From assembly GCF_023716945.1 (NCBI RefSeq), contig NZ_JAMQQF010000016.1, forward strand, positions 1 through 37,097: a DNA stretch of 37,097 nucleotides, written 5' to 3'. Every line of letters begins with the position of its first letter. Position 1 is the first letter of the stretch. The notes under the pieces were generated by a model. That model saw only the letters and a program-made list of their open reading frames with translations, was not told the DNA's origin and did not search any database. This stretch comes from Frankia sp. AiPs1. Lineage in GTDB: Bacteria > Actinomycetota > Actinomycetes > Frankiales > Frankiaceae. A program made the translations under genes and the position numbers. Positions 22,460 to 32,476 of this stretch are shown in pieces.

Positions 22460-23038
22460 TCAGCGTTCGTCGAGGACGTGGTCGAGCAGCGCGATGACTG
22501 TCTCGGTGTCCGCGCGGGCGAGTGTGGCGAGGACCCCGGTGTGACGGGCGAGAACGACGCCGATGAGTGCGGCGGTGAGCAGCTCGGCCCGCAGTTGCGC
22601 GTCGGCGGCGTGCTCGTGGGCCAACCGGGCTGCCAGCGGCGCGACGATGCGACGGTGGAGTTCGGTGGCCGCGGCCTCCTGCGCCGTCCGGTCGTCGTAG
22701 GGTTTGATCGCGGCCTGGAAGATCGGCCCTGGACCGCTTCGGTCGGTGCGCCGGATCAGGGCGGCGAGCCGGTCGGGCTCGAGGAAGTCGGTGGGAGTCT
22801 CCCCGGCGTCTGCTGCCTGCAGTGTCGCGATGTAGAGCTGGGCCTTCCCGCCGAAGTAGCGGGCGATCATGGTGGGGTCGACACCGGCGAGCTGGCCGAT
22901 GTCGCGAGCGGTGGTCCTGTCGAACCCGCGTTCGGCGAACAGCTGCGCGGCGGCGGCGAGCAGGCGTTCCTTGCTGGCGGCGGCGTCGCGGCGGCGCGGC
23001 ACCGTCGTGTTCTTCGCCGTGGACGTCTCATGATTCAC
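22460..23038 (-). CDS. TetR-family transcriptional regulator
   Basis: This 192-residue repressor has the N-terminal helix-turn-helix (RLLAAAAQLFAERGFDRTTA, then VDPTMIARYFGGKAQLY) and a helical ligand-binding domain. It starts at a GTG 18 nt after the stop of the MFS exporter gene, so the two are probably one transcript and the regulator likely controls the exporter in response to an exported compound. The ribosome binding site is weak (GAAGAGGAA about 12 nt away), so the start is less secure than the family. Confidence 0.9.
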   Translation of the reverse strand: MNHETSTAKNTTVPRRRDAAASKERLLAAAAQLFAERGFDRTTARDIGQLAGVDPTMIARYFGGKAQLYIATLQAADAGETPTDFLEPDRLAALIRRTDRSGPGPIFQAAIKPYDDRTAQEAAATELHRRIVAPLAARLAHEHAADAQLRAELLTAALIGVVLARHTGVLATLARADTETVIALLDHVLDER

Positions 23039-23056
23039 GAAGGGTCATGTTCCTCT

Positions 23057-24622
23057 TCATCGACGTTCCCCGGGTCTGCCGGTATCGGTCTGCTCGCCGG
23101 CGGCGCCTGGCCGGCCGGCATCGCCGGGGACCGCCAAAGCGAGGCTTTCGAGATCCTGCTCCTCTTCTTCGACGATGGCCTCCCGCTCTTCGACGATGGC
23201 CTCCTGCGCCGGGCTCAGGCCGAACCGCCGGCCGCCGAGCCAGGGCAGAAACACGCTGCTGGCCGCCGTCAGGACCCACATGAAGCAGGATGCGACGGCA
23301 ACCGCGGTATAGCCGCGGTCGGCCGGAAACGACGCCCCGGGCCGGGTGTGCGCCTGCAGGATCGCGGCGCTGGCGCTGCTGCCGATTCCGTAGCCGACGT
23401 AGCGCAGCACCTGGTTGAAGCTGAGCGCACTGCCGGTCTCGCGAGCGGGCACCGACTGCACGATGAACCCGGGCATGACGGCGAAGATCGCGCCGATCCC
23501 GAGGCCGGCGATGGCCATCACCACCGCGATCTCCACGAACGTGTCGTGGGCCAGGGCGAACATGACCATCCCGGCCAGCAGCACGCTCGCGGCAAGCGAG
23601 AGCACCCGGCCCGGCGCCATCCTGCGGATCAGCGCCCGGGTGATGCTGCTGGCCGCGATCGTGCCGACGGAGAACGGCGTCAGCATCAAGCCCGCGACGG
23701 CGACCGAGGCACCCAGCCCGTAGCCCACGCTCGTGGGCGTCTGCACCAGGCGGGTCACCGTCGAGGTGAGCAGGTACATGCCGACGCCGGTGAACACTGC
23801 GCACACGTCGGCGGTCAGCACGACGATGTGCCGCAACCGGCGCACATCGACCAGCGGATGATCGCTGCGCAGCTCCAGCCCCACCCAGCCGGCCAGCATC
23901 GCGATCGCGACCGCGACGGTGCCGAGCAGGCGCGCCGACGCCCAGCCCCACCGCCCGCCCTCACTGATCGCCAACAGCAACCCGGCCAGGGCGATCCCGA
24001 GCGTGCTCGCGCCGGCAAGATCGAGCCGGGTCGCCGGCCGATGGCGGGAGGACGGCACCACCACCATCGCGGCGAGCAGTGCCGCGACCGCGATGGCAAC
24101 CCCGAACCAGAACGCCACGCGCAGGCCGCAGGTCTCGGCGATCAGCGCGACGAGCGGGTATCCCAGGCCGATGCCGGCAACGGTGGTGATCGACAGGATC
24201 GCCATCGCCGGGCGGGCGCGCTCTGGTGGCAGGGCGTCGCGGGCCACCGTCAGGGTGAGTGGGGTGAGGCCGAGGCCCACGCCCTGGGCCGCCCGGCCGC
24301 CGAGCAGCGTCGGAAAGCCCAGCGGCAGGGCGGCGAGGGCGCCGCCGATCGCCACGATGACCAGGCCGACCAGCAGCACCGGTTTGCGGTACTGGCCGTC
24401 GCCCAGGCGCCCGATGGTCGGCGTGGCGACCGCGCCGACCAGGAAGGTGATCGTCAGTGACCACTGCGCGTCGTCGACCGAGACGTGATTGACCGCGGCG
24501 ACCAGTGGCACCAGCGGCGCGCCCAGGCTGCCGACCACGGCGACGACCATGCCGATGAAGACCAGTCCAGGCACCAGGAGTCTGTGTGCGGCCCGTCCGG
24601 GCCCCGCGTCATCGCGATTCAT
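23057..24622 (-). CDS. MFS drug exporter (DHA2-like, about 14 helices)
   Basis: This 521-residue membrane protein belongs to the major facilitator superfamily and is like the 14-helix DHA2 exporters that pump drugs or metabolites with the proton gradient. Hydrophobic segments run the length of the protein. GRLGDGQYRKPVLLVG is the loop 2-3 signature (GxLaDrxGrkxxl type), and LGYPLVALIAE lies in helix 5, the antiporter motif C region. The C-terminal 45 residues are hydrophilic and contain a duplicated EAIVEE segment encoded by a 16-bp repeat at 23167-23182 and 23188-23203. The ATG at 24622 starts the fold. It shares a transcript with the TetR gene. The substrate is unknown; the divergent synthetase product is one possibility. 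Confidence 0.92.
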   Translation of the reverse strand: MNRDDAGPGRAAHRLLVPGLVFIGMVVAVVGSLGAPLVPLVAAVNHVSVDDAQWSLTITFLVGAVATPTIGRLGDGQYRKPVLLVGLVIVAIGGALAALPLGFPTLLGGRAAQGVGLGLTPLTLTVARDALPPERARPAMAILSITTVAGIGLGYPLVALIAETCGLRVAFWFGVAIAVAALLAAMVVVPSSRHRPATRLDLAGASTLGIALAGLLLAISEGGRWGWASARLLGTVAVAIAMLAGWVGLELRSDHPLVDVRRLRHIVVLTADVCAVFTGVGMYLLTSTVTRLVQTPTSVGYGLGASVAVAGLMLTPFSVGTIAASSITRALIRRMAPGRVLSLAASVLLAGMVMFALAHDTFVEIAVVMAIAGLGIGAIFAVMPGFIVQSVPARETGSALSFNQVLRYVGYGIGSSASAAILQAHTRPGASFPADRGYTAVAVASCFMWVLTAASSVFLPWLGGRRFGLSPAQEAIVEEREAIVEEEEQDLESLALAVPGDAGRPGAAGEQTDTGRPGERR

Positions 24623-25270: not shown

Positions 25271-25315
25271 ATGACAATACCGTCCGTCCCTGGACGACCG
25301 ACCCGGCTGACATGA
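25271..25315 (+). CDS. Candidate 14-residue leader ORF coupled to synthetase
   Basis: GGAGG at 25262-25266 precedes an ATG at 25271 with ideal spacing. The ORF reads MTIPSVPGRPTRLT and its TGA overlaps the synthetase ATG as ATGA. The synthetase start has no other good ribosome binding site, so ribosomes finishing this ORF could reinitiate there. A longer ORF in another frame (66 residues from a TTG at 25074) ends at TGA 25272-25274, overlapping this ATG in the same way. The peptide shows no run of one regulatory amino acid, so classic attenuation is not indicated. Real translation is unproven. Confidence 0.4.
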   Translation: MTIPSVPGRPTRLT

Positions 25316-28161
25316 GGGAGGGCCCGCCCTCCCGGCCGGTGTCGATGTCGGCATCGACACCGACACCGATCGGGCCGCCGGTGCCGCCACTGCGTCCCGA
25401 CGACCGGTTCGGAAACCTCGTCGACCGGATCCGCGCCGTCGCCGCGGTCTGCCGCGACGTCGTGGCGGTCCGCGATGAGCACCTGGCCGTCACCTTCGCC
25501 GAGCTCGTCGCCTGGGTGGACGTCGTCGCCGACCGGATCCTGCGGGAGCCGGCCGCGGCCGACCCGGACACGCCCGTCGCGGTGCTGCTGCCCCACGGCG
25601 CGAGTGGCATCGCGGCCGTCCTGGGCGTCGTCGCGAGCGGCCGGCCCTGCGTGCCCCTCGACGGGCTGACTCCCCCCGACCGCCTCGCGCAGATCGTGGG
25701 ACTGGCCGGGGCCCCGGTGTGCGTCACCGGACCGGCCGGCTCCGCCGACCAGCGGACCGCCGCCGCGCTGCCGGGGATCGTGGCGACGGTCGACGTCGGC
25801 GACGAGCGCGCCGCCGCCTGGTCCCCGGCGTTGGCCGACCGGGTGGCGTCGACCGCGCCGCGCCGGGCCGACACCGATCCGGCCGTGCTGATCTTCACCT
25901 CCGGGTCGACCGGAGCACCCAAGGGCGTCGTCTGGCACCACCGCGCCCTGCTCGGCATCCACTACGCCATCCAGGTCCGGGACGTGATGCGGCCGGTGCC
26001 GGGCGACCGGCTGCCGTTGTTCCTGCCCTACTCCTTCATCTCGGGGCTGAACCGGATGGTTGGTGGCCTGGTCTTCGGCACCACCCTGGAGATGTACGAC
26101 CCGCGGGTCCGCGGCGTGCGCAATCTGGCCGGCTGGCTGCGCACCACCCGGCCGGCCGGCATCGTGGCCACGCCGGCGCTGATCCGGACCGTGTTCGGCT
26201 GCCTCGAGCCGGACGAGGTGCTCGACGACCTGCGGTTCGTCATGTCGGTCGGCGAGGCGATCTACGCCCGCGACGTCGCGCTGGCCCGCCGTCACCTGCC
26301 GCCGACCGCGGCGTTCCTGGTCTCCTACGGGGCCTCGGAGCTCGGCACGGCGACCTGCGCCCCGATCTGGTCGGACGAGGACCTGCCCGACGGCGTGATG
26401 CCGGCCGGGCGGCCGGTGGTCGACGTCGCGGTGCGGGTGATCTCACCGGACGGCGTCGAGCTGTCACCCGGACAGACGGGTGAGATCGTCGTGGCGGGCC
26501 ACTTCATCACGGGAGGCTACTGGCGGGCGCCGGCGGCGAGCGCCGCGCGGTTCGGCGTCGGCCCGGACGGCACGCCCACCTACCGCACCGGCGACCTCGG
26601 CCGCCTCGATGCCGGTGGCCAGCTGCGGGTCGTCGGCCGCAACGACGCGGCCGTGAAGATCCGCGGGTACCTCGTCGAGCCGATCGAGATCGAGTCCGCC
26701 CTGCTCGCGACCTCGGACGTGCTCGAGGCCGTCGTCGTGGCCGACCGGAGCACCGAGCGCACCCGCCTGGTCGCCTACGTCGTCCCCGCGTCCGGCGCCC
26801 GGGTCTCGCCGGCCTCGATCAGACGCCTGCTGCGGGCCAAGCTGCCGTCCTACATGGTGCCGGCCGTCGTCATGCTGGTCTCCGCGCTGCCGAGGACCGA
26901 CCGCAGCAAGGTGGACCGCCTGCACCTGCCCCCCGCCCCCACCGGCCCGAGATCCGACCAGAACCCGCCGCGCGACCAGTGGGAGGAGGCCGTCGCCGGC
27001 GTGTGGGCCGCCGCCCTGCACCTCGACGACGTCGGCATCCACGACGACTTCGTCGAACTCGGCGGGGACTCCCTCATCGCCGAGGAGCTGCTCAGCAGGA
27101 TCGCCGACGAACTCGGCGTCGACCTGCCCACCTCCACCGTCGCCGACGCCCCCACCGTCGCCGAGTTCACCGTCCGCCTGCGCAACACCGGTACCGACGT
27201 GCTGCGGCACCCCACCGTCGTCCCGCTGCGCACCACCGGCGACGGCCCGCCCCTGTTCTGCTTCTGCGGCGCCGGCGGCCTGGCCATCGGCATGCTCGGC
27301 TTCGCCCGCCACTTCGACGGCGAGCGTCCCGTCTACGGCATCCAGGCCCACGGCCTGGAATACCGCGGCCTGCCCGACTGGTCCATCCTTGCCGCCGCCC
27401 GCCGCCACGCCCGCACCCTGCGCCTGCTCCAACCCGCCGGCCCCTACCACCTCGCCGGGCACTCCTTCGGTGGGCTCGTCGCCTTCGAGACCGCACGGCT
27501 GCTCACCGAGGCCGGCGGCCACGTCGAGGTGCTGATCCTCATCGACAGCTTCCCGCCCGACCCGTCCGGCGGCGTCTTCGCGGGCGGGGTGCTGCCCTCC
27601 GCGCTGCCAGGGGCCCCGGCCATGGCCTCGCCTCCGGCCATGCCCTCGCCTCCGGGTATGCCCTCGCCTCCGGGTATGCCTTCGCCTCCGGGTATGACCT
27701 CGCCTTTGGCCGCGACCTCGCCCCCGGGCACGACGCCGCCTCCGGGCGCAGCCGCGGACCGGGTCGGGGGATCGGCCACGGGCCCGGCGCGCGGCGTGGG
27801 GGCTGCCGCGCGGGTCGCCGCCCGGGCCCTGCTCGGCCGGGCCTGGCGCGCGGCCCAGCTTCCGATGGCCGGTGTCGTCCAGTTCAGGGGCATGAACCAG
27901 TACGACGTCTTCTACGACCAGTCCCGGGTGCTCACCAGGTTGTACCGGCCGAGGCCCTGGAACGGGCGGGCGCTGGTCTACACGGCGACCGCGTCGCCGG
28001 CGCACCGTCGGGATGTCTGGCGCGCGCTGCTGACCGGCGAGGCGGTCTACCGGACCGTGGGCGGCGACCACGACACCGTGCTACGCGAACCCGTCGTCAG
28101 CGAGATCGCCGCCGACATCCGGGCGGTCCTCGCCGGCCGCACCAGCCCCCGCAGGGCCTGA
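25312..28161 (+). CDS. A-T-TE nonribosomal peptide synthetase-like enzyme
   Basis: This 949-residue single-module enzyme has adenylation (about 40-530), thiolation (about 548-620) and thioesterase (about 633-940) domains and no condensation domain. The A motifs are present: LIFTSGSTGAPKG, SYGASE, YRTGDLG, KIRGYLVEPIEIES, and the A10 Lys in TDRSKVDR. The T Ser is S587 in LGGDSL. The TE triad is S718 (GHSFGG), D745 and H920. Where amino-acid-activating domains have the amine-binding Asp (GrsA D235), the gapless alignment gives I243 (SFISGL). The substrate is therefore probably an alpha-keto, aryl or hydroxy acid. Atromentin- and ralfuranone-type synthetases share this architecture. Residues about 765-820 of the TE are a Pro/Ser/Met repeat insertion. 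It begins at the ATGA overlap with the leader ORF. Confidence 0.93.
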   Translation: MREGPPSRPVSMSASTPTPIGPPVPPLRPDDRFGNLVDRIRAVAAVCRDVVAVRDEHLAVTFAELVAWVDVVADRILREPAAADPDTPVAVLLPHGASGIAAVLGVVASGRPCVPLDGLTPPDRLAQIVGLAGAPVCVTGPAGSADQRTAAALPGIVATVDVGDERAAAWSPALADRVASTAPRRADTDPAVLIFTSGSTGAPKGVVWHHRALLGIHYAIQVRDVMRPVPGDRLPLFLPYSFISGLNRMVGGLVFGTTLEMYDPRVRGVRNLAGWLRTTRPAGIVATPALIRTVFGCLEPDEVLDDLRFVMSVGEAIYARDVALARRHLPPTAAFLVSYGASELGTATCAPIWSDEDLPDGVMPAGRPVVDVAVRVISPDGVELSPGQTGEIVVAGHFITGGYWRAPAASAARFGVGPDGTPTYRTGDLGRLDAGGQLRVVGRNDAAVKIRGYLVEPIEIESALLATSDVLEAVVVADRSTERTRLVAYVVPASGARVSPASIRRLLRAKLPSYMVPAVVMLVSALPRTDRSKVDRLHLPPAPTGPRSDQNPPRDQWEEAVAGVWAAALHLDDVGIHDDFVELGGDSLIAEELLSRIADELGVDLPTSTVADAPTVAEFTVRLRNTGTDVLRHPTVVPLRTTGDGPPLFCFCGAGGLAIGMLGFARHFDGERPVYGIQAHGLEYRGLPDWSILAAARRHARTLRLLQPAGPYHLAGHSFGGLVAFETARLLTEAGGHVEVLILIDSFPPDPSGGVFAGGVLPSALPGAPAMASPPAMPSPPGMPSPPGMPSPPGMTSPLAATSPPGTTPPPGAAADRVGGSATGPARGVGAAARVAARALLGRAWRAAQLPMAGVVQFRGMNQYDVFYDQSRVLTRLYRPRPWNGRALVYTATASPAHRRDVWRALLTGEAVYRTVGGDHDTVLREPVVSEIAADIRAVLAGRTSPRRA
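25316..25333 (+). promoter_or_regulatory. Hairpin overlapping the synthetase start
   Basis: GGGAGGGC and GCCCTCCC are perfect inverted arms, 2 nt apart, beginning 4 nt after the A of the start codon at 25312. In mRNA this could hide the start codon region until translation of the leader ORF opens it. Confidence 0.4.
27607..27740. repeat. 18-bp tandem repeat inside thioesterase coding region
   Basis: Units of the type ATGCCCTCGCCTCCGGGT recur at least three times with few changes, flanked by diverged copies. They code for MPSPPG repeats and preserve the reading frame. Confidence 0.85.
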
Positions 28162-28183
28162 CCCGCCCCCGCAGGGACTGACC
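28145..28183. repeat. 20-bp-period direct repeat across the synthetase stop
   Basis: GCCCCCGCAGGGCCTGACC (28145-28163) and a copy with one change (28165-28183) run in tandem. The synthetase stop codon lies in the first copy. GGTCCTGACC-type repeats continue to about 28215. Confidence 0.7.
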
Positions 28184-28334
28184 GGTCCTGACCGGTCCCC
28201 GGAGGGCCTGACCGGCCGCCGCGTGGGTGCTTCCTGGCGTGATGCCGGCCGGGCGGCCGGTGGACCGACTGACCATCTCGGCGGCGGGGAGGACCGCGCT
28301 GCCGTGACCCGCCGACAGCGAAGGGTCCGTATTC

Positions 28335-29537
28335 GTGAGGGTGCAGGACGCAGTCAACGTCGAGGACGTCCGGAGGCTGGCGCGCCGCCGGCTTCCCCGG
28401 GTGGTCTTCGACGCCCTGGCGGGCGGCGCCGGCGACGAGGTGTCGCTGCGGCGCAACCGTACGGCGTTCGACCGCATCGAGTTCCGTCCGCGGCCGCTCG
28501 CCGACGTCGCGACGCGGGACCTCTCGACGACCGTGTTCGGTGAACGGCTGTCGATGCCGATCATGCTGGCGCCCACGGGCGCGAGCCGCCTCGCCCGTTC
28601 CTCCGCGGAGCTCGCCGTGGCGCGGGCCGCGGCGCGGGCGGACGTCGTGTACATGCAGAGCACCGTGGCGGCCTTCCCGCTCGAGGACGTCGCCGCCGCC
28701 TCGGCCGGCACGCTGTGGTACCAGCTCTACCTGCCCCCCGACCGCGCCGAGCTCGGCGACCTCCTCCGGCGGATCGCGGCGGCCGGGTACCGGGCGCTGG
28801 CCATCACCATCGACACCCCGGTCCTGGGTAACCGGGAGCGCGACACGCGCAACCGGCTCATGAACCGGCCGCCGCATCCCCGGACGCTGCTGCAGGGCGC
28901 GGGCAAGCCGGCGTGGGCAGCCGACTTCGTCCGCGGCAAAGTCGACTACCTGCGCGGCCAGCTCGGCGCCGGCCGTGCCGCCAGTCCGGCCGGTGCGGCC
29001 AGTCCGACCCCCCTGAGCCTCGACCAGACCCGGGCGACGATCACGTCGTCGTCGGACTGCATCACCTGGTCGGACGTCGAGCGGATCCGGTCGTTGTGGG
29101 AGGGCCCGCTGCTTCTCAAGGGTCTGATGCGTGGGGACGAGTGCGACCGGCTCGTCGAGCTGGGCGTCGACGGGGTCGTCGTCTCGAACCACGGCGGTCG
29201 GCAGCTCGACGGCGTCCCCGCGACCATCGACATCCTGCCGGAGGTGGTCGACGCGGCGGCGGGCCGGCTCGCGGTGTTCCTCGACGGAGGTGTCCGGCGC
29301 GGCAACGACGTGGCCAAGGCGCTCGCCCTCGGCGCCGCGGGTGTCTTCGTGGGACGGCCCTATCTGTACGGCCTGGCCGCGGGCGGTGAGGCCGGCGTCC
29401 TGCGGGTGATCGAGCTGCTGCGCGCGGAGTTCGACCGCGCGATGGCCCTGCTCGGCGCCGCGACCGTGGCGGACCTCGACCGAAGCCTCGTTTCGGGTGC
29501 GCGCATCCCCGCCATCCCGTCACCGTCGACGCCGTAG
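28335..29537 (+). CDS. FMN-dependent alpha-hydroxyacid oxidase/dehydrogenase
   Basis: This 400-residue TIM-barrel flavoenzyme oxidises an alpha-hydroxy acid (lactate, mandelate, glycolate or similar) to the keto acid. The sites are intact: YQLYLPPD, TIDTPVLGNRERDTRN, LLLKGLM (Lys), the base H286 in SNHGGRQLDG, and DGGVRRGND (substrate-carboxylate Arg). A variable loop, residues about 200-240, precedes the catalytic half and is rich in Ala/Ser/Pro. The GTG at 28335 has GAAGGG nine bases upstream; GTG at 28341 is possible. It follows the A-T-TE synthetase on the same strand after 173 bp. If linked, it would make the alpha-keto acid the synthetase activates, similar to hydroxymandelate oxidase feeding keto acids to NRPS pathways. 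This link is inference. Confidence 0.92.
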   Translation: MRVQDAVNVEDVRRLARRRLPRVVFDALAGGAGDEVSLRRNRTAFDRIEFRPRPLADVATRDLSTTVFGERLSMPIMLAPTGASRLARSSAELAVARAAARADVVYMQSTVAAFPLEDVAAASAGTLWYQLYLPPDRAELGDLLRRIAAAGYRALAITIDTPVLGNRERDTRNRLMNRPPHPRTLLQGAGKPAWAADFVRGKVDYLRGQLGAGRAASPAGAASPTPLSLDQTRATITSSSDCITWSDVERIRSLWEGPLLLKGLMRGDECDRLVELGVDGVVVSNHGGRQLDGVPATIDILPEVVDAAAGRLAVFLDGGVRRGNDVAKALALGAAGVFVGRPYLYGLAAGGEAGVLRVIELLRAEFDRAMALLGAATVADLDRSLVSGARIPAIPSPSTP

Positions 29538-30231: not shown

Positions 30232-30251
30232 GGCAGGCGGCTCACGGCAGG
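30224..30251. repeat. 14-bp perfect tandem duplication at kinase/regulator junction
   Basis: CGGCTCACGGCAGG occurs twice head to tail. The kinase stop codon lies in one copy and the regulator GTG in the other. Confidence 0.9.
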
Positions 30252-31129
30252 CGGCCCGGACCGTGGGGCACGGTGATCGTGATGACGGTGGGCCCGCCCG
30301 CCGGGCTGTCGAGGTCGAGCCGGCCGTCGAAGGTCTCGAGCCGGCGCATGACGCCGCGCAGCCCCAGCCCTGCCGCGGGGTCGGCGCCCCCGATCCCGTT
30401 GTCGGTGACGACGATCCTCAGGACGGCCCCGTCGTGGCGCAGGGTGACCCCGCCGGCCGTGGCCCGGCTGTGCTTGACGGCGTTGGCGAGACACTCGGCG
30501 GTCGCGAGGTAGGCGGCCGACTGCACCGCCGCAGGCAGCGCCGCCGGGGCATCGCCGTCGACGGTCACCGGCAGCGCGAGGTCCAGGGCGAGGGCCCGCA
30601 GACCGCCGGCGAGGCCGCGGTCGGCGAGCACCGCGGGGTGGATGCTGTGCATGACGGTGCGCAGGTCGGCCAGGGCGCTGACCGCGGTGGACCGGGCCTC
30701 GCTCAGCAGTTGCGCGGTCGCGTCGGGGTCCGCCCGGATCAGGTCCTGCGCCATGCCGAGGCTGAGCGCGAGCGAGACCATGCGCGCCTGGGCGCCGTCA
30801 TGGAGGTCCCGTTCGACCCGGGCGAGTTCGGCGGCCTGCCCGTCGAGGGCCCGGCGGCGGGTGTGCGTCAGGATGTCGACCCGTCTGGTGAGCTCCTTCT
30901 CCCGGCCGTCCGGGCGGCGGCTGACCACCCAGGCGTGCACGCCGAAGAGGATCGACCACGCTGTGGTGCTCCACAGCGGCCAGAAGTACCCACCCCCGGA
31001 GAGCGCCCACACCGTCAGATCGACCGGCACGAGGAGCACCAGCACCGCTCGTCCGGCCGCCAGCCGCCGGCGGCGGCCCGGCGGCCGGCGAAGCGTCCAG
31101 CCCGCCAAGCAGGCCGGCGAGGGCGGCAA
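30242..31129 (-). CDS. Sensor histidine kinase (NarL-partner type) with 2TM domain
   Basis: This 295-residue kinase has an Arg-rich N-terminus, then a 2TM-type sensor of two membrane helices around GGGYFWPLW. A dimerisation/phosphoacceptor domain follows with H110 in RVERDLHDGAQARM, and the ATP-binding domain has CLANAVKHS (N box), DNGIGG (G1) and GLGLRGV (G2). The only upstream start that keeps the Arg-rich segment is a TTG at 31129, and a GTG at 31045 is the other option; both have weak ribosome binding sites. Its first 332 bp overlap the end of the DUF418 gene in another frame, so the N-terminus may be shortened or the start displaced by a past deletion. Confidence 0.88.
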   Translation of the reverse strand: MPPSPACLAGWTLRRPPGRRRRLAAGRAVLVLLVPVDLTVWALSGGGYFWPLWSTTAWSILFGVHAWVVSRRPDGREKELTRRVDILTHTRRRALDGQAAELARVERDLHDGAQARMVSLALSLGMAQDLIRADPDATAQLLSEARSTAVSALADLRTVMHSIHPAVLADRGLAGGLRALALDLALPVTVDGDAPAALPAAVQSAAYLATAECLANAVKHSRATAGGVTLRHDGAVLRIVVTDNGIGGADPAAGLGLRGVMRRLETFDGRLDLDSPAGGPTVITITVPHGPGRLP

Positions 31130-32198
31130 CGTAGGTGGAGCCGCCGAGGTCGAGTGCCCACCGGGAGAACAGCGCCAGCCACACCACCGACTGGAACAGG
31201 TATCCCGTCATCGAACGGCGTCCCAGGGCGGCCACGTCGTGCACACAGCTCCAGGCCCGATCCGAGCGCACGCGCCGCGGCTGGGCCAGTCGCGCCGCCA
31301 GCAGGCCGAACAGGGCCACGTAGCCGGGGCCGGCGTACTCGCCCGTGACCGCGTGGAGCCACGACATGCGGTGCACTGTACCTGCGTCGACATGCGCGAT
31401 ACCGGCCGAAACGAAGGCGTACGGCAGCGCGCCGGCGATGGCGATACCGAGGCCGACGCAGGCGACCCGACGCAGCAGCGTCCGGTGCGCGGCAGGGTCC
31501 TCGAGGATGCGCCGCCGTGCCGCCCAGATGCCCAGCCAGACGATGACGAGGAAGGGAATCACGGTCGCGGTGTGGACGGGCCATTCGGCGAGCCGGTCGA
31601 GGACCGAGCGCCCGTAGGACGACGCCGCCAGCGACGGGTCGGCCGAGTTGGTCAGTGTCGCCTGCCCCCGCTGCCAGCGCAGGACGACCGCCAGCGCGAC
31701 GGCCGCGGCCTCGAGCGTCTGGATTCCCCAGAGCCAGAGCACGAGCCGGTGGAAACGGTCGCCTCGATGGAGCATGAAAAGGGTCGCGAGGATGCCGACG
31801 ATTCCGTAGGCGCCGAGGAAGTCGCCGAAGTAGAGCAGCGTCGCATGCACGAAGCCGAAGCCGATGAGGCAGGCGTTGCGGCGCAGCAGGACACGCCGCC
31901 CGCCGTCGCGGTCGGTCGCCCGGCGGCGGGCGAGTTGGACGAGGCTGTAACCGAACATGACCGCGAAGACCGGGTACGCCCGGTTGTTCACCAGCGTGAT
32001 CATCAGGAAGTTCACGACGCGCTCCGCGCCGCGGGGCGTGCCGTCAATGCCGGGCCGGCCGGCGAAGGCGCAGTTCCCGGCGTTGGCGAGCGCGATGAAC
32101 AGCAGCATCGCGCCGCGGGCCAGGTCGGGGGCCAGCGCGCGCTGCACGAGGTGCACAGGTCCGGGCGAGGATGCCGGCGCGGGAAGTGGCTGCGTCAT
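30798..32198 (-). CDS. DUF418-type membrane protein with overrun 3' end
   Basis: This is a DUF418/YeiB-like membrane protein of unknown function. From the ATG at 32198 (behind GAGGGTC) it keeps the N-terminal helices (GAMLLFIALAN), NNRAYPVFAVMFGYSLVQLARR, RRNACLIGFGFVHATLLYFGDFL and the late RRSMTGYLFQSVVWLALFSRWAL. After the helix ending near 31110 the usual closing part of the family (a helix and a G-P-x-E-x-L-LR-x-LT segment) is missing. The frame runs on through low-complexity sequence into the kinase gene until 30798. The last 110 or so codons overlap the kinase and are probably not native. A deletion that joined the two genes would explain it. Confidence 0.75.
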   Translation of the reverse strand: MTQPLPAPASSPGPVHLVQRALAPDLARGAMLLFIALANAGNCAFAGRPGIDGTPRGAERVVNFLMITLVNNRAYPVFAVMFGYSLVQLARRRATDRDGGRRVLLRRNACLIGFGFVHATLLYFGDFLGAYGIVGILATLFMLHRGDRFHRLVLWLWGIQTLEAAAVALAVVLRWQRGQATLTNSADPSLAASSYGRSVLDRLAEWPVHTATVIPFLVIVWLGIWAARRRILEDPAAHRTLLRRVACVGLGIAIAGALPYAFVSAGIAHVDAGTVHRMSWLHAVTGEYAGPGYVALFGLLAARLAQPRRVRSDRAWSCVHDVAALGRRSMTGYLFQSVVWLALFSRWALDLGGSTYVAALAGLLGGLDASPAAGPPPAAGGRTSGAGAPRAGRSDGVGALRGWVLLAAVEHHSVVDPLRRARLGGQPPPGRPGEGAHQTGRHPDAHPPPGPRRAGRRTRPGRTGPP

Positions 32199-32476
32199 GA
32201 CCCTCAGACTCGCGGCGCCCGGCCACCGCCACGAGGGGCCTGGACACCCTCTTCGATCGGGGGCCTGCACCCTCCCCAGCTCGCCTGACGCCGCCATGTC
32301 CGCCGCCCATGGCTCCGGGGAATCGTGTGACAGGCGGGGCCGTGGCGCTCATGATGATCGTCGTATGCCCGCCATGCGAGCCGAGTGAGGGCCGACGACC
32401 GAGTAACCGCGGCAGGTCGGTGACGAGCGTCGACACGTGTGCGTGGGCTCGGCCGCGATGACGCTGGGAGGCCAGG

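What the first reader, a model, noticed from the sequence alone, without database searches (positions are those of the whole stretch)
25312..29537. A-T-TE synthetase without the amine-binding Asp, next to an alpha-hydroxyacid oxidase
In a gapless 28-residue match to the GrsA A4 region, the D235 position is I243. Known: loss of this Asp marks domains that activate alpha-keto, aryl or hydroxy acids, and A-T-TE enzymes such as atromentin and ralfuranone synthetases dimerise arylpyruvates. The adjacent flavoenzyme could make the keto acid. The pair suggests a compact, possibly undescribed pathway to a furanone, quinone or dimeric keto-acid product.
Basis: partly seen in the sequence, partly recalled or inferred. 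Interest (0 to 1): 0.7.

Follow-up and report, generated by a model that had tools for sequence, protein, structure and literature searches.

The report
Asp-less A-T-TE synthetase with hydroxyacid oxidase
Some Frankia bacteria and close relatives carry a small, conserved pair of genes, one that probably loads and releases an organic acid other than an amino acid and one that is probably an oxidase, and what the pair makes is unknown.

Summary
Observation confirmed. Window 25312-28161 encodes an intact A-T-TE protein in which Ile243 stands at the GrsA D235 site; an FMN alpha-hydroxyacid-oxidase-family gene follows (28335-29537). The orthologous synthetase is in 8 of 35 Frankiaceae genomes searched, each time with the oxidase downstream on the same strand although the flanks differ. 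dN/dS is below 0.4 for both.

Interpretation partly supported. Loss of Asp is not a keto-acid mark here: 44 of 44 aligned A domains of a wider actinobacterial A-T-TE branch lack it, while 11 of 12 other A domains in the same alignment keep it. Seven related loci lie with 3-amino-5-hydroxybenzoate-type genes and one beside 3-amino-4-hydroxybenzoate-type genes, so aryl acids are as plausible as keto acids. Residues reported for aryl-pyruvate quinone synthetases are not matched. The oxidase keeps its catalytic residues but has Ala for glycolate oxidase Tyr24 (9 of 9); of 24 homologues outside its clade only a pre-mycofactocin synthase has Ala. That weakens "it simply makes the keto acid".

Verdict: a conserved two-gene cassette, a new variant of a known kind, that I found described nowhere in the searches made. 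Substrate and product are unresolved; furanone or quinone formation is speculation.

The parts
25312..28161 (+). A-T-TE synthetase, 949 aa (adenylation, carrier, thioesterase)
   Evidence: orthologues at 77-88% identity in L001, L046-L048, L067-L069
25438..26523 (+). A domain core (residues 43-404); AlphaFold2 model of residues 31-545 has mean pLDDT 91.1, pTM 0.88
26038..26040 (+). codon of Ile243, the GrsA D235 position
26332..26334 (+). codon of Ala341 (YGASE), the Pro of amino-acid A domains and the StsA M415 site
26989..27168 (+). carrier (T) domain, residues 560-619, Ser587
27247..28158 (+). thioesterase domain from residue 646 to the end, Ser718/Asp745/His920; Pfam matched 646-749 only, the rest is by alignment
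27616..27747 (+). 18-bp tandem repeat (7.3 copies), a Pro-rich insert inside the TE domain; its length differs between orthologues
28335..29537 (+). FMN-dependent alpha-hydroxyacid oxidase/dehydrogenase family, 400 aa; Ala27 = GOX Tyr24, Val111 = GOX Trp108; Tyr132, Asp160, Arg167, Lys262, His286, Arg289 kept

Best explanation
A stand-alone, probably two-gene pathway. The A domain adenylates a carboxylic acid that lacks an alpha-amino group (an alpha-hydroxy/alpha-keto acid or an aryl acid) and loads it on the T domain, and the TE releases it by transfer to a second molecule or to water. The FMN enzyme next door oxidises the alpha-carbon of the same acyl unit, either as the free acid before loading or when its carboxyl is already engaged. 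Shown: domain anatomy, catalytic residues in place, loss of Asp, conserved pairing, purifying selection. Inferred: that the substrate lacks an amine, that the two enzymes share a substrate, the order of steps and the kind of release. Unknown: the substrate and the product.
For: Catalytic residues in 8 of 8 orthologues. 0 of 44 branch A domains have Asp against 11 of 12 other A domains. The 44 branch rows separate from the rest with 99/95 support in a midpoint-rooted tree. Relatives have aminohydroxybenzoate-type genes as neighbours. Pairing in 8 of 8 genomes that hold this synthetase, gaps 64-173 bp in seven loci and about 350 bp in L067, while the immediate flanks differ between window/L001/L046, L047, L048 and the Pseudofrankia-type loci. 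dN/dS below 0.4. The oxidase keeps His286, Arg289, Arg167, Asp160, Tyr132, Lys262.
Against: G029 keeps an oxidase orthologue (78% identity) with no orthologous A-T-TE beside it; only more distant A-T-TEs were found in that genome, so the oxidase may have a separate role. McyG activates Phe with Val at this site (PMC11253843 passages), so an amino-acid substrate is not strictly excluded. The pocket is not wholly constant among orthologues: position 331 is Ala in five and Thr in three, 299 is Met in seven and Leu in one.
Confidence: 0.6

Rival explanations
1. One reading: the oxidase makes a free alpha-keto acid, the A domain loads it, and the TE dimerises two units into a furanone, quinone or similar product, as atromentin and ralfuranone synthetases do.
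For: Same architecture; Ile at the Asp site as in StsA; Pro to Ala at the StsA M415 site, a change (P483A) that gave LgrA a small rise in keto-acid activity (PMC11253843 passages); both Arg on the carboxylate side of the oxidase are kept.
Against: Both A-domain features are branch-wide; the reported aryl-pyruvate code is not matched; Tyr24 is lost in the oxidase. RalA, EchA and the fungal enzymes were not compared by sequence. In HcaB a predicted keto-acid A domain keeps Asp235 (PMC10949194 passages), so the residue is not decisive in that direction either.
Confidence: 0.25
2. Aryl-acid model: like its relatives the A domain loads a substituted benzoic acid; the TE joins it to another molecule, and the oxidase acts on a mandelate-like or product-borne hydroxyl.
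For: Seven of seven A-T-TE loci read in sister genus g5 (six genomes) hold at least one gene of an AHBA-type set (families assigned in L129 and L130 only; TIGR01454 above its cut-off); L137 has an adjacent DHQS-II and ADH-synthase pair, both above subfamily cut-offs; a BenE-family gene lies next to the A-T-TE of L133.
Against: In six group I loci none of the neighbours fell into the gene clusters of that set; the window pocket (I S N V M V S T A K) shares only the Lys with the L129 pocket (A A T H T S W S L K) and only N, V and K with L137.
Confidence: 0.3
3. On-line oxidation: the A domain loads an alpha-hydroxy acid and the FMN enzyme oxidises it while it is held as a carrier thioester or after release as an ester, so no free carboxylate is needed.
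For: Tyr24 is Ala in 9 of 9 clade members; of 24 homologues outside the clade 20 have Tyr, 3 Phe and 1 Ala, the last a pre-mycofactocin synthase by its model (688.6 bits, cut-off 470.85), an enzyme whose substrate AHDP is a pyrrolidinone (PMC7491314 passages).
Against: Arg167 and Arg289 are kept, whereas the MftD-like protein has Asn at the latter site; the oxidase persists without this synthetase in G029.
Confidence: 0.25
4. The A domain activates an ordinary alpha-amino acid in spite of the lost Asp, as McyG does with Val at that site.
For: McyG precedent (PMC11253843 passages); the best NCBIfam match is the amino-acid adenylation domain model, 250 bits, below its cut-off of 317.4.
Against: Branch-wide loss of Asp and of the A5 Pro.
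Confidence: 0.08

Closest known systems
StsA / cereulide-type alpha-keto-acid A domains
   Same: Asp replaced by Ile; A5 Pro replaced (Met in StsA, Ala here)
   Different: StsA sits in an A-KR-T module that reduces the keto acid; here A-T-TE plus a separate oxidase, the opposite redox direction
Atromentin/polyporic acid synthetases and ralfuranone synthetase (A-T-TE)
   Same: domain order, size, no C domain, Asp lost
   Different: code positions 1 and 5 differ from those reported; no sequence comparison was made; no product known
Actinobacterial A-T-TE proteins with AHBA-type or 3,4-AHBA-type genes (L125-L131, L137)
   Same: same A-domain branch, Asp and A5 Pro absent; A, T and TE domains shown in L129 and L137
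   Different: different pocket; no such genes seen by the window's pair; the oxidase gene beside them was not looked for beyond gene clusters, which showed none
FMN alpha-hydroxyacid oxidases (glycolate oxidase, LldD, mandelate dehydrogenase)
   Same: PF01070 family and catalytic residues
   Different: Tyr24 is Ala; below the curated cut-offs of the NCBIfam models for lactate dehydrogenase, lactate oxidase and MftD
MftD, pre-mycofactocin synthase
   Same: Ala at the Tyr24 site in the Frankia copy L076; same superfamily
   Different: 39% identical; L076 has Asn where the cassette oxidase keeps Arg289

Membership tests
NRPS-like A-T-TE synthetase | A, T and TE domains in one chain, no condensation domain | tested here: met
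NRPS-like A-T-TE synthetase | A Lys, T Ser, TE Ser-Asp-His in place | tested here: met
   8 of 8 orthologues
alpha-keto-acid A domain (StsA type) | Asp235 replaced by an aliphatic residue | tested here: met
   Ile243, 8 of 8; shared by relatives with aryl-acid genes, so not diagnostic
alpha-keto-acid A domain (StsA type) | A5 Pro replaced | tested here: met
   Ala341, 8 of 8; not diagnostic, 44 of 44 branch rows lack the Pro
alpha-keto-acid A domain (StsA type) | adenylates alpha-keto acids | not testable with these tools
   needs ATP exchange
aryl-pyruvate quinone/furanone synthetase | Val at code position 1; Ile/Val or Asn at position 5 | tested here: not met
   Ile; Met in 7 of 8, Leu in 1 of 8; reported code from PMC10316625 passages
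aryl-pyruvate quinone/furanone synthetase | groups with RalA, EchA or fungal enzymes in a tree | not tested
   no reference sequences on hand
aminohydroxybenzoate A-T-TE branch | same A-domain branch | tested here: met
   44 rows together, 99/95
aminohydroxybenzoate A-T-TE branch | aminohydroxybenzoate genes beside it | tested here: not met
   no neighbour in window, L047, L048, L067-L069 clusters with the set; ten window genes were run against Pfam, most neighbours in the other loci were not
FMN alpha-hydroxyacid oxidase | PF01070 with catalytic His, Arg, Asp, Tyr, Lys | tested here: met
FMN alpha-hydroxyacid oxidase | Tyr24 substrate contact (Phe in long-chain enzymes) | tested here: not met
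   Ala in 9 of 9; the role of Tyr24 is recalled, with a cited title and a figure legend seen in PMC10153336

The most novel reading that the evidence does not exclude
The FMN enzyme is a hydroxyacid-oxidase-family member that works on a carrier-held or esterified alpha-hydroxyacyl group made by an A-T-TE synthetase, giving an alpha-keto (thio)ester that the TE condenses: a two-protein activate, oxidise and release line of a kind that none of my paper searches turned up.
Probability: 0.2. Interest if true: 0.7.

Novelty: new variant of a known kind. Interest (0 to 1): 0.45.

Why it matters
A-T-TE enzymes without condensation domains may be missed in cluster surveys: one 2013 survey counted only four unique NRPS clusters, and two hybrids, in the genus Frankia (PMC3848822 passages). 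Here members of this A-T-TE branch are found in 24 of 35 Frankiaceae genomes, and one kind carries an oxidase beside it. Finding its substrate would show whether loss of Asp235 means keto, hydroxy or aryl acids in this branch, and could reveal a small molecule of nitrogen-fixing plant symbionts.

Tried and rejected

A mandelate-type pocket in the oxidase (Gly82, Val111) was considered and dropped: Gly at that site is in 24 of 24 homologues outside the clade too. Plasmid tblastn matched 2859 records, none covering 80% of the query; the 30 listed have 32-36% identity. No A-T-TE was matched in the fetched flanks (about 1.5 kb) of 18 oxidase homologues, nor in the 12-18 kb around six others. Paper searches that could have shown the pair gave no description of it in titles and abstracts listed; one search returned 0 papers. 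They cover only the held open-access library.

Limits. GrsA, RalA, EchA and fungal synthetase sequences were not on hand. The 44 branch rows are not every member found: near-identical ones (such as L025, L032) and a cut-off one (L012) were left out, and of 19 genomes outside Frankiaceae with a TE match nine regions were fetched and eight used (L141, open frame 495 aa, left out). The assignment of pocket position 278 is by eye; the HMMER alignment puts a gap there. The 24 oxidase homologues are six chosen and the 18 best new loci, which lists matches in 56 of 393 genomes. Genes in loci were called by my own GC-based script, which missed some genes (for example the oxidase in L067, found by tblastn). 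An earlier count said 42 rows; the right number is 44.

Full report
What is there. ORF 25312-28161 (+) encodes 949 aa with AMP-binding, AMP-binding_C, PP-binding and Thioesterase domains and no condensation domain. ORF 28335-29537 (+) encodes a 400-aa member of PF01070 (FMN_dh), scoring below the curated cut-offs of the lactate dehydrogenase, lactate oxidase and pre-mycofactocin synthase models.

Asp loss. In phmmer alignments with the two LgrA A domains the A4 region is gapless and I243 faces the Asp of both; A341 in YGASE faces the Pro of YGPTE, which counts as P483 in the printed LgrA chain. The review PMC11253843 (passages) says that StsA, an alpha-keto-acid enzyme, has Ile306 at the Asp site and Met415 at the Pro site, and that LgrA P483A or P483M gains a small amount of keto-acid activity. 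By alignment the pocket (GrsA 235, 236, 239, 278, 299, 301, 322, 330, 331, 517) reads I S N V M V S T A K; in the eight orthologues position 299 is Met in seven and Leu in one, and 331 is Ala in five and Thr in three.

Control. In one alignment of 56 A domains (kept from 96 tblastn matches by length and by a 95% identity filter), 44 of 44 members of the A-T-TE branch lack Asp (Ala 24, Ile 13, Gly 4, His 2, Ser 1) and lack the A5 Pro (Ala 21, Ser 21, Val 1, Thr 1). Of the 12 other A domains 11 have Asp (L005 has Gly) and 8 have the Pro; a full-length alignment of the 44 gives the same counts. The 44 separate from the rest with 99/95 support, in a tree rooted at the midpoint for drawing; inside it the eight window orthologues are sister to five other proteins with Ile at the Asp site (100/99). 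So the loss of Asp is a trait of the branch, not of this enzyme.

Neighbours of relatives. In sister genus g5 all seven A-T-TE loci read (six genomes) hold at least one gene of a set; the dehydroquinate-synthase-like gene is in six of the seven (clusters). The set was assigned in L129 and L130 as DegT aminotransferase, GFO/IDH/MocA oxidoreductase, ROK kinase, shikimate-dehydrogenase-like, dehydroquinate-synthase-like, and a HAD protein above the cut-off of TIGR01454 (AHBA synthesis associated protein, 342.2 against 246.65 bits). That such a set makes 3-amino-5-hydroxybenzoate, as in rifamycin clusters, is recalled. In L137 the A-T-TE lies beside a dehydroquinate synthase II (476 against 375) and an ADH synthase (275.7 against 241), which also match the 3,4-AHBA models BagC/FevH and BagB/FevI, below their cut-offs. 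These contexts make substituted benzoates the likely substrates of those relatives, by inference.

Pairing. An oxidase orthologue (78% tblastn identity or more) was found in 9 of 35 Frankiaceae genomes. In 8 of the 9 the orthologous synthetase lies directly upstream on the same strand; the ninth, G029, has the oxidase alone, with more distant A-T-TEs elsewhere. By a TE-segment search the orthologous synthetase is in 8 of 35 Frankiaceae genomes, and A-T-TE proteins of the branch are in 24 of 35 (best match per genome E below 1e-38); two more genomes have weak TE matches in short frames. Of 393 genomes of the class, drawn evenly, 43 have a TE match at 1e-24 or better, 24 of them Frankiaceae; in the 19 others identity is at most 52%, so none looks orthologous. 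A pattern scan of one genome for each of 84,980 species gave nine loci, four of them close (77-87%), all Frankia or Pseudofrankia; the scan finds close relatives only and may leave out the window's own genome. Immediate flanks are shared by the window, L001 and L046, and among the Pseudofrankia-type loci, but differ between these groups, L047 and L048. Pairwise dN/dS is 0.28-0.38 and 0.20-0.24.

The oxidase. Tyr132, Asp160, Arg167, Lys262, His286 and Arg289 match Tyr129, Asp157, Arg164, Lys230, His254 and Arg257 of glycolate oxidase; Tyr24 is Ala27 and Trp108 is Val111 (the spinach numbering is recalled). PMC10153336 (passages) calls the active-site residues well conserved, notes Phe in place of the Tyr in long-chain enzymes and says that Trp is specific to glycolate oxidases; [quoted passage not shown] All 9 clade members have Ala; of 24 homologues outside the clade 20 have Tyr, 3 Phe and 1 Ala (L076, a pre-mycofactocin synthase by its model). 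PMC7491314 (passages) says MftD oxidatively deaminates AHDP, which is a pyrrolidinone. This hints at a substrate whose carboxyl is engaged, but both Arg are kept here while L076 has Asn at one, so free acids remain possible.

Reading. I hold that the A domain most likely uses an acid without an alpha-amine (about 0.9), that the two enzymes work in one pathway (about 0.8), and that the substrate class is open: alpha-keto or alpha-hydroxy acid and aryl acid are near equal. The aryl-pyruvate code reported for quinone synthetases (PMC10316625 passages) is not matched, so I do not file this as such a synthetase, though it could still work like one. The numbers given to the explanations overlap, since the first is general and the first three rivals are special cases of it.

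Noticed in passing
L013, L037-L041, L052:8981-10288 and others: A shorter protein (about 367-475 aa open frame) with the same kind of TE domain is in 12 of 13 Frankia-genus genomes (all but G006) and in two of genus g7; in L052 only the Thioesterase domain reached Pfam threshold, and a luciferase-like monooxygenase gene is next to it.
   Followed up: partly
L011, L022-L033, L049-L051, L094: A second A-T-TE (about 41-45% tblastn identity, Ala at the Asp site in the 11 aligned) is in 13 of 13 Frankia-genus genomes, in a neighbourhood shared by L049-L051 that in L049 holds SpoIIE, DUF4230, Hsp20 and ABC-transporter genes.
   Followed up: partly
L125-L131: A-T-TE with an AHBA-type gene set and, in five of seven loci, a neighbouring gene of one cluster that is an ABC transporter in L129: a likely aminohydroxybenzoate product in sister genus g5.
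   Followed up: partly
window 22460-24622: A TetR regulator and an EmrB-like MFS efflux gene lie between the M13 peptidase gene and the A-T-TE in the window but not in L046 or L001, which otherwise share that flank.
   Followed up: no
window 30242-32297: A histidine kinase ORF and a DUF418 ORF overlap by about 330 bp in different frames on the minus strand; the end of the DUF418 ORF looks out of frame, possibly a frameshift or assembly error.
   Followed up: no
L137:6858-10736: The A-T-TE beside 3,4-AHBA-type genes has about 450 N-terminal residues before its A domain with no Pfam match.
   Followed up: no
L046:7329-8666: The oxidase orthologue carries an extra stretch of roughly 30-45 residues near query residues 211-224 (two match pieces, open frame), perhaps the flexible loop 4.
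   Followed up: no
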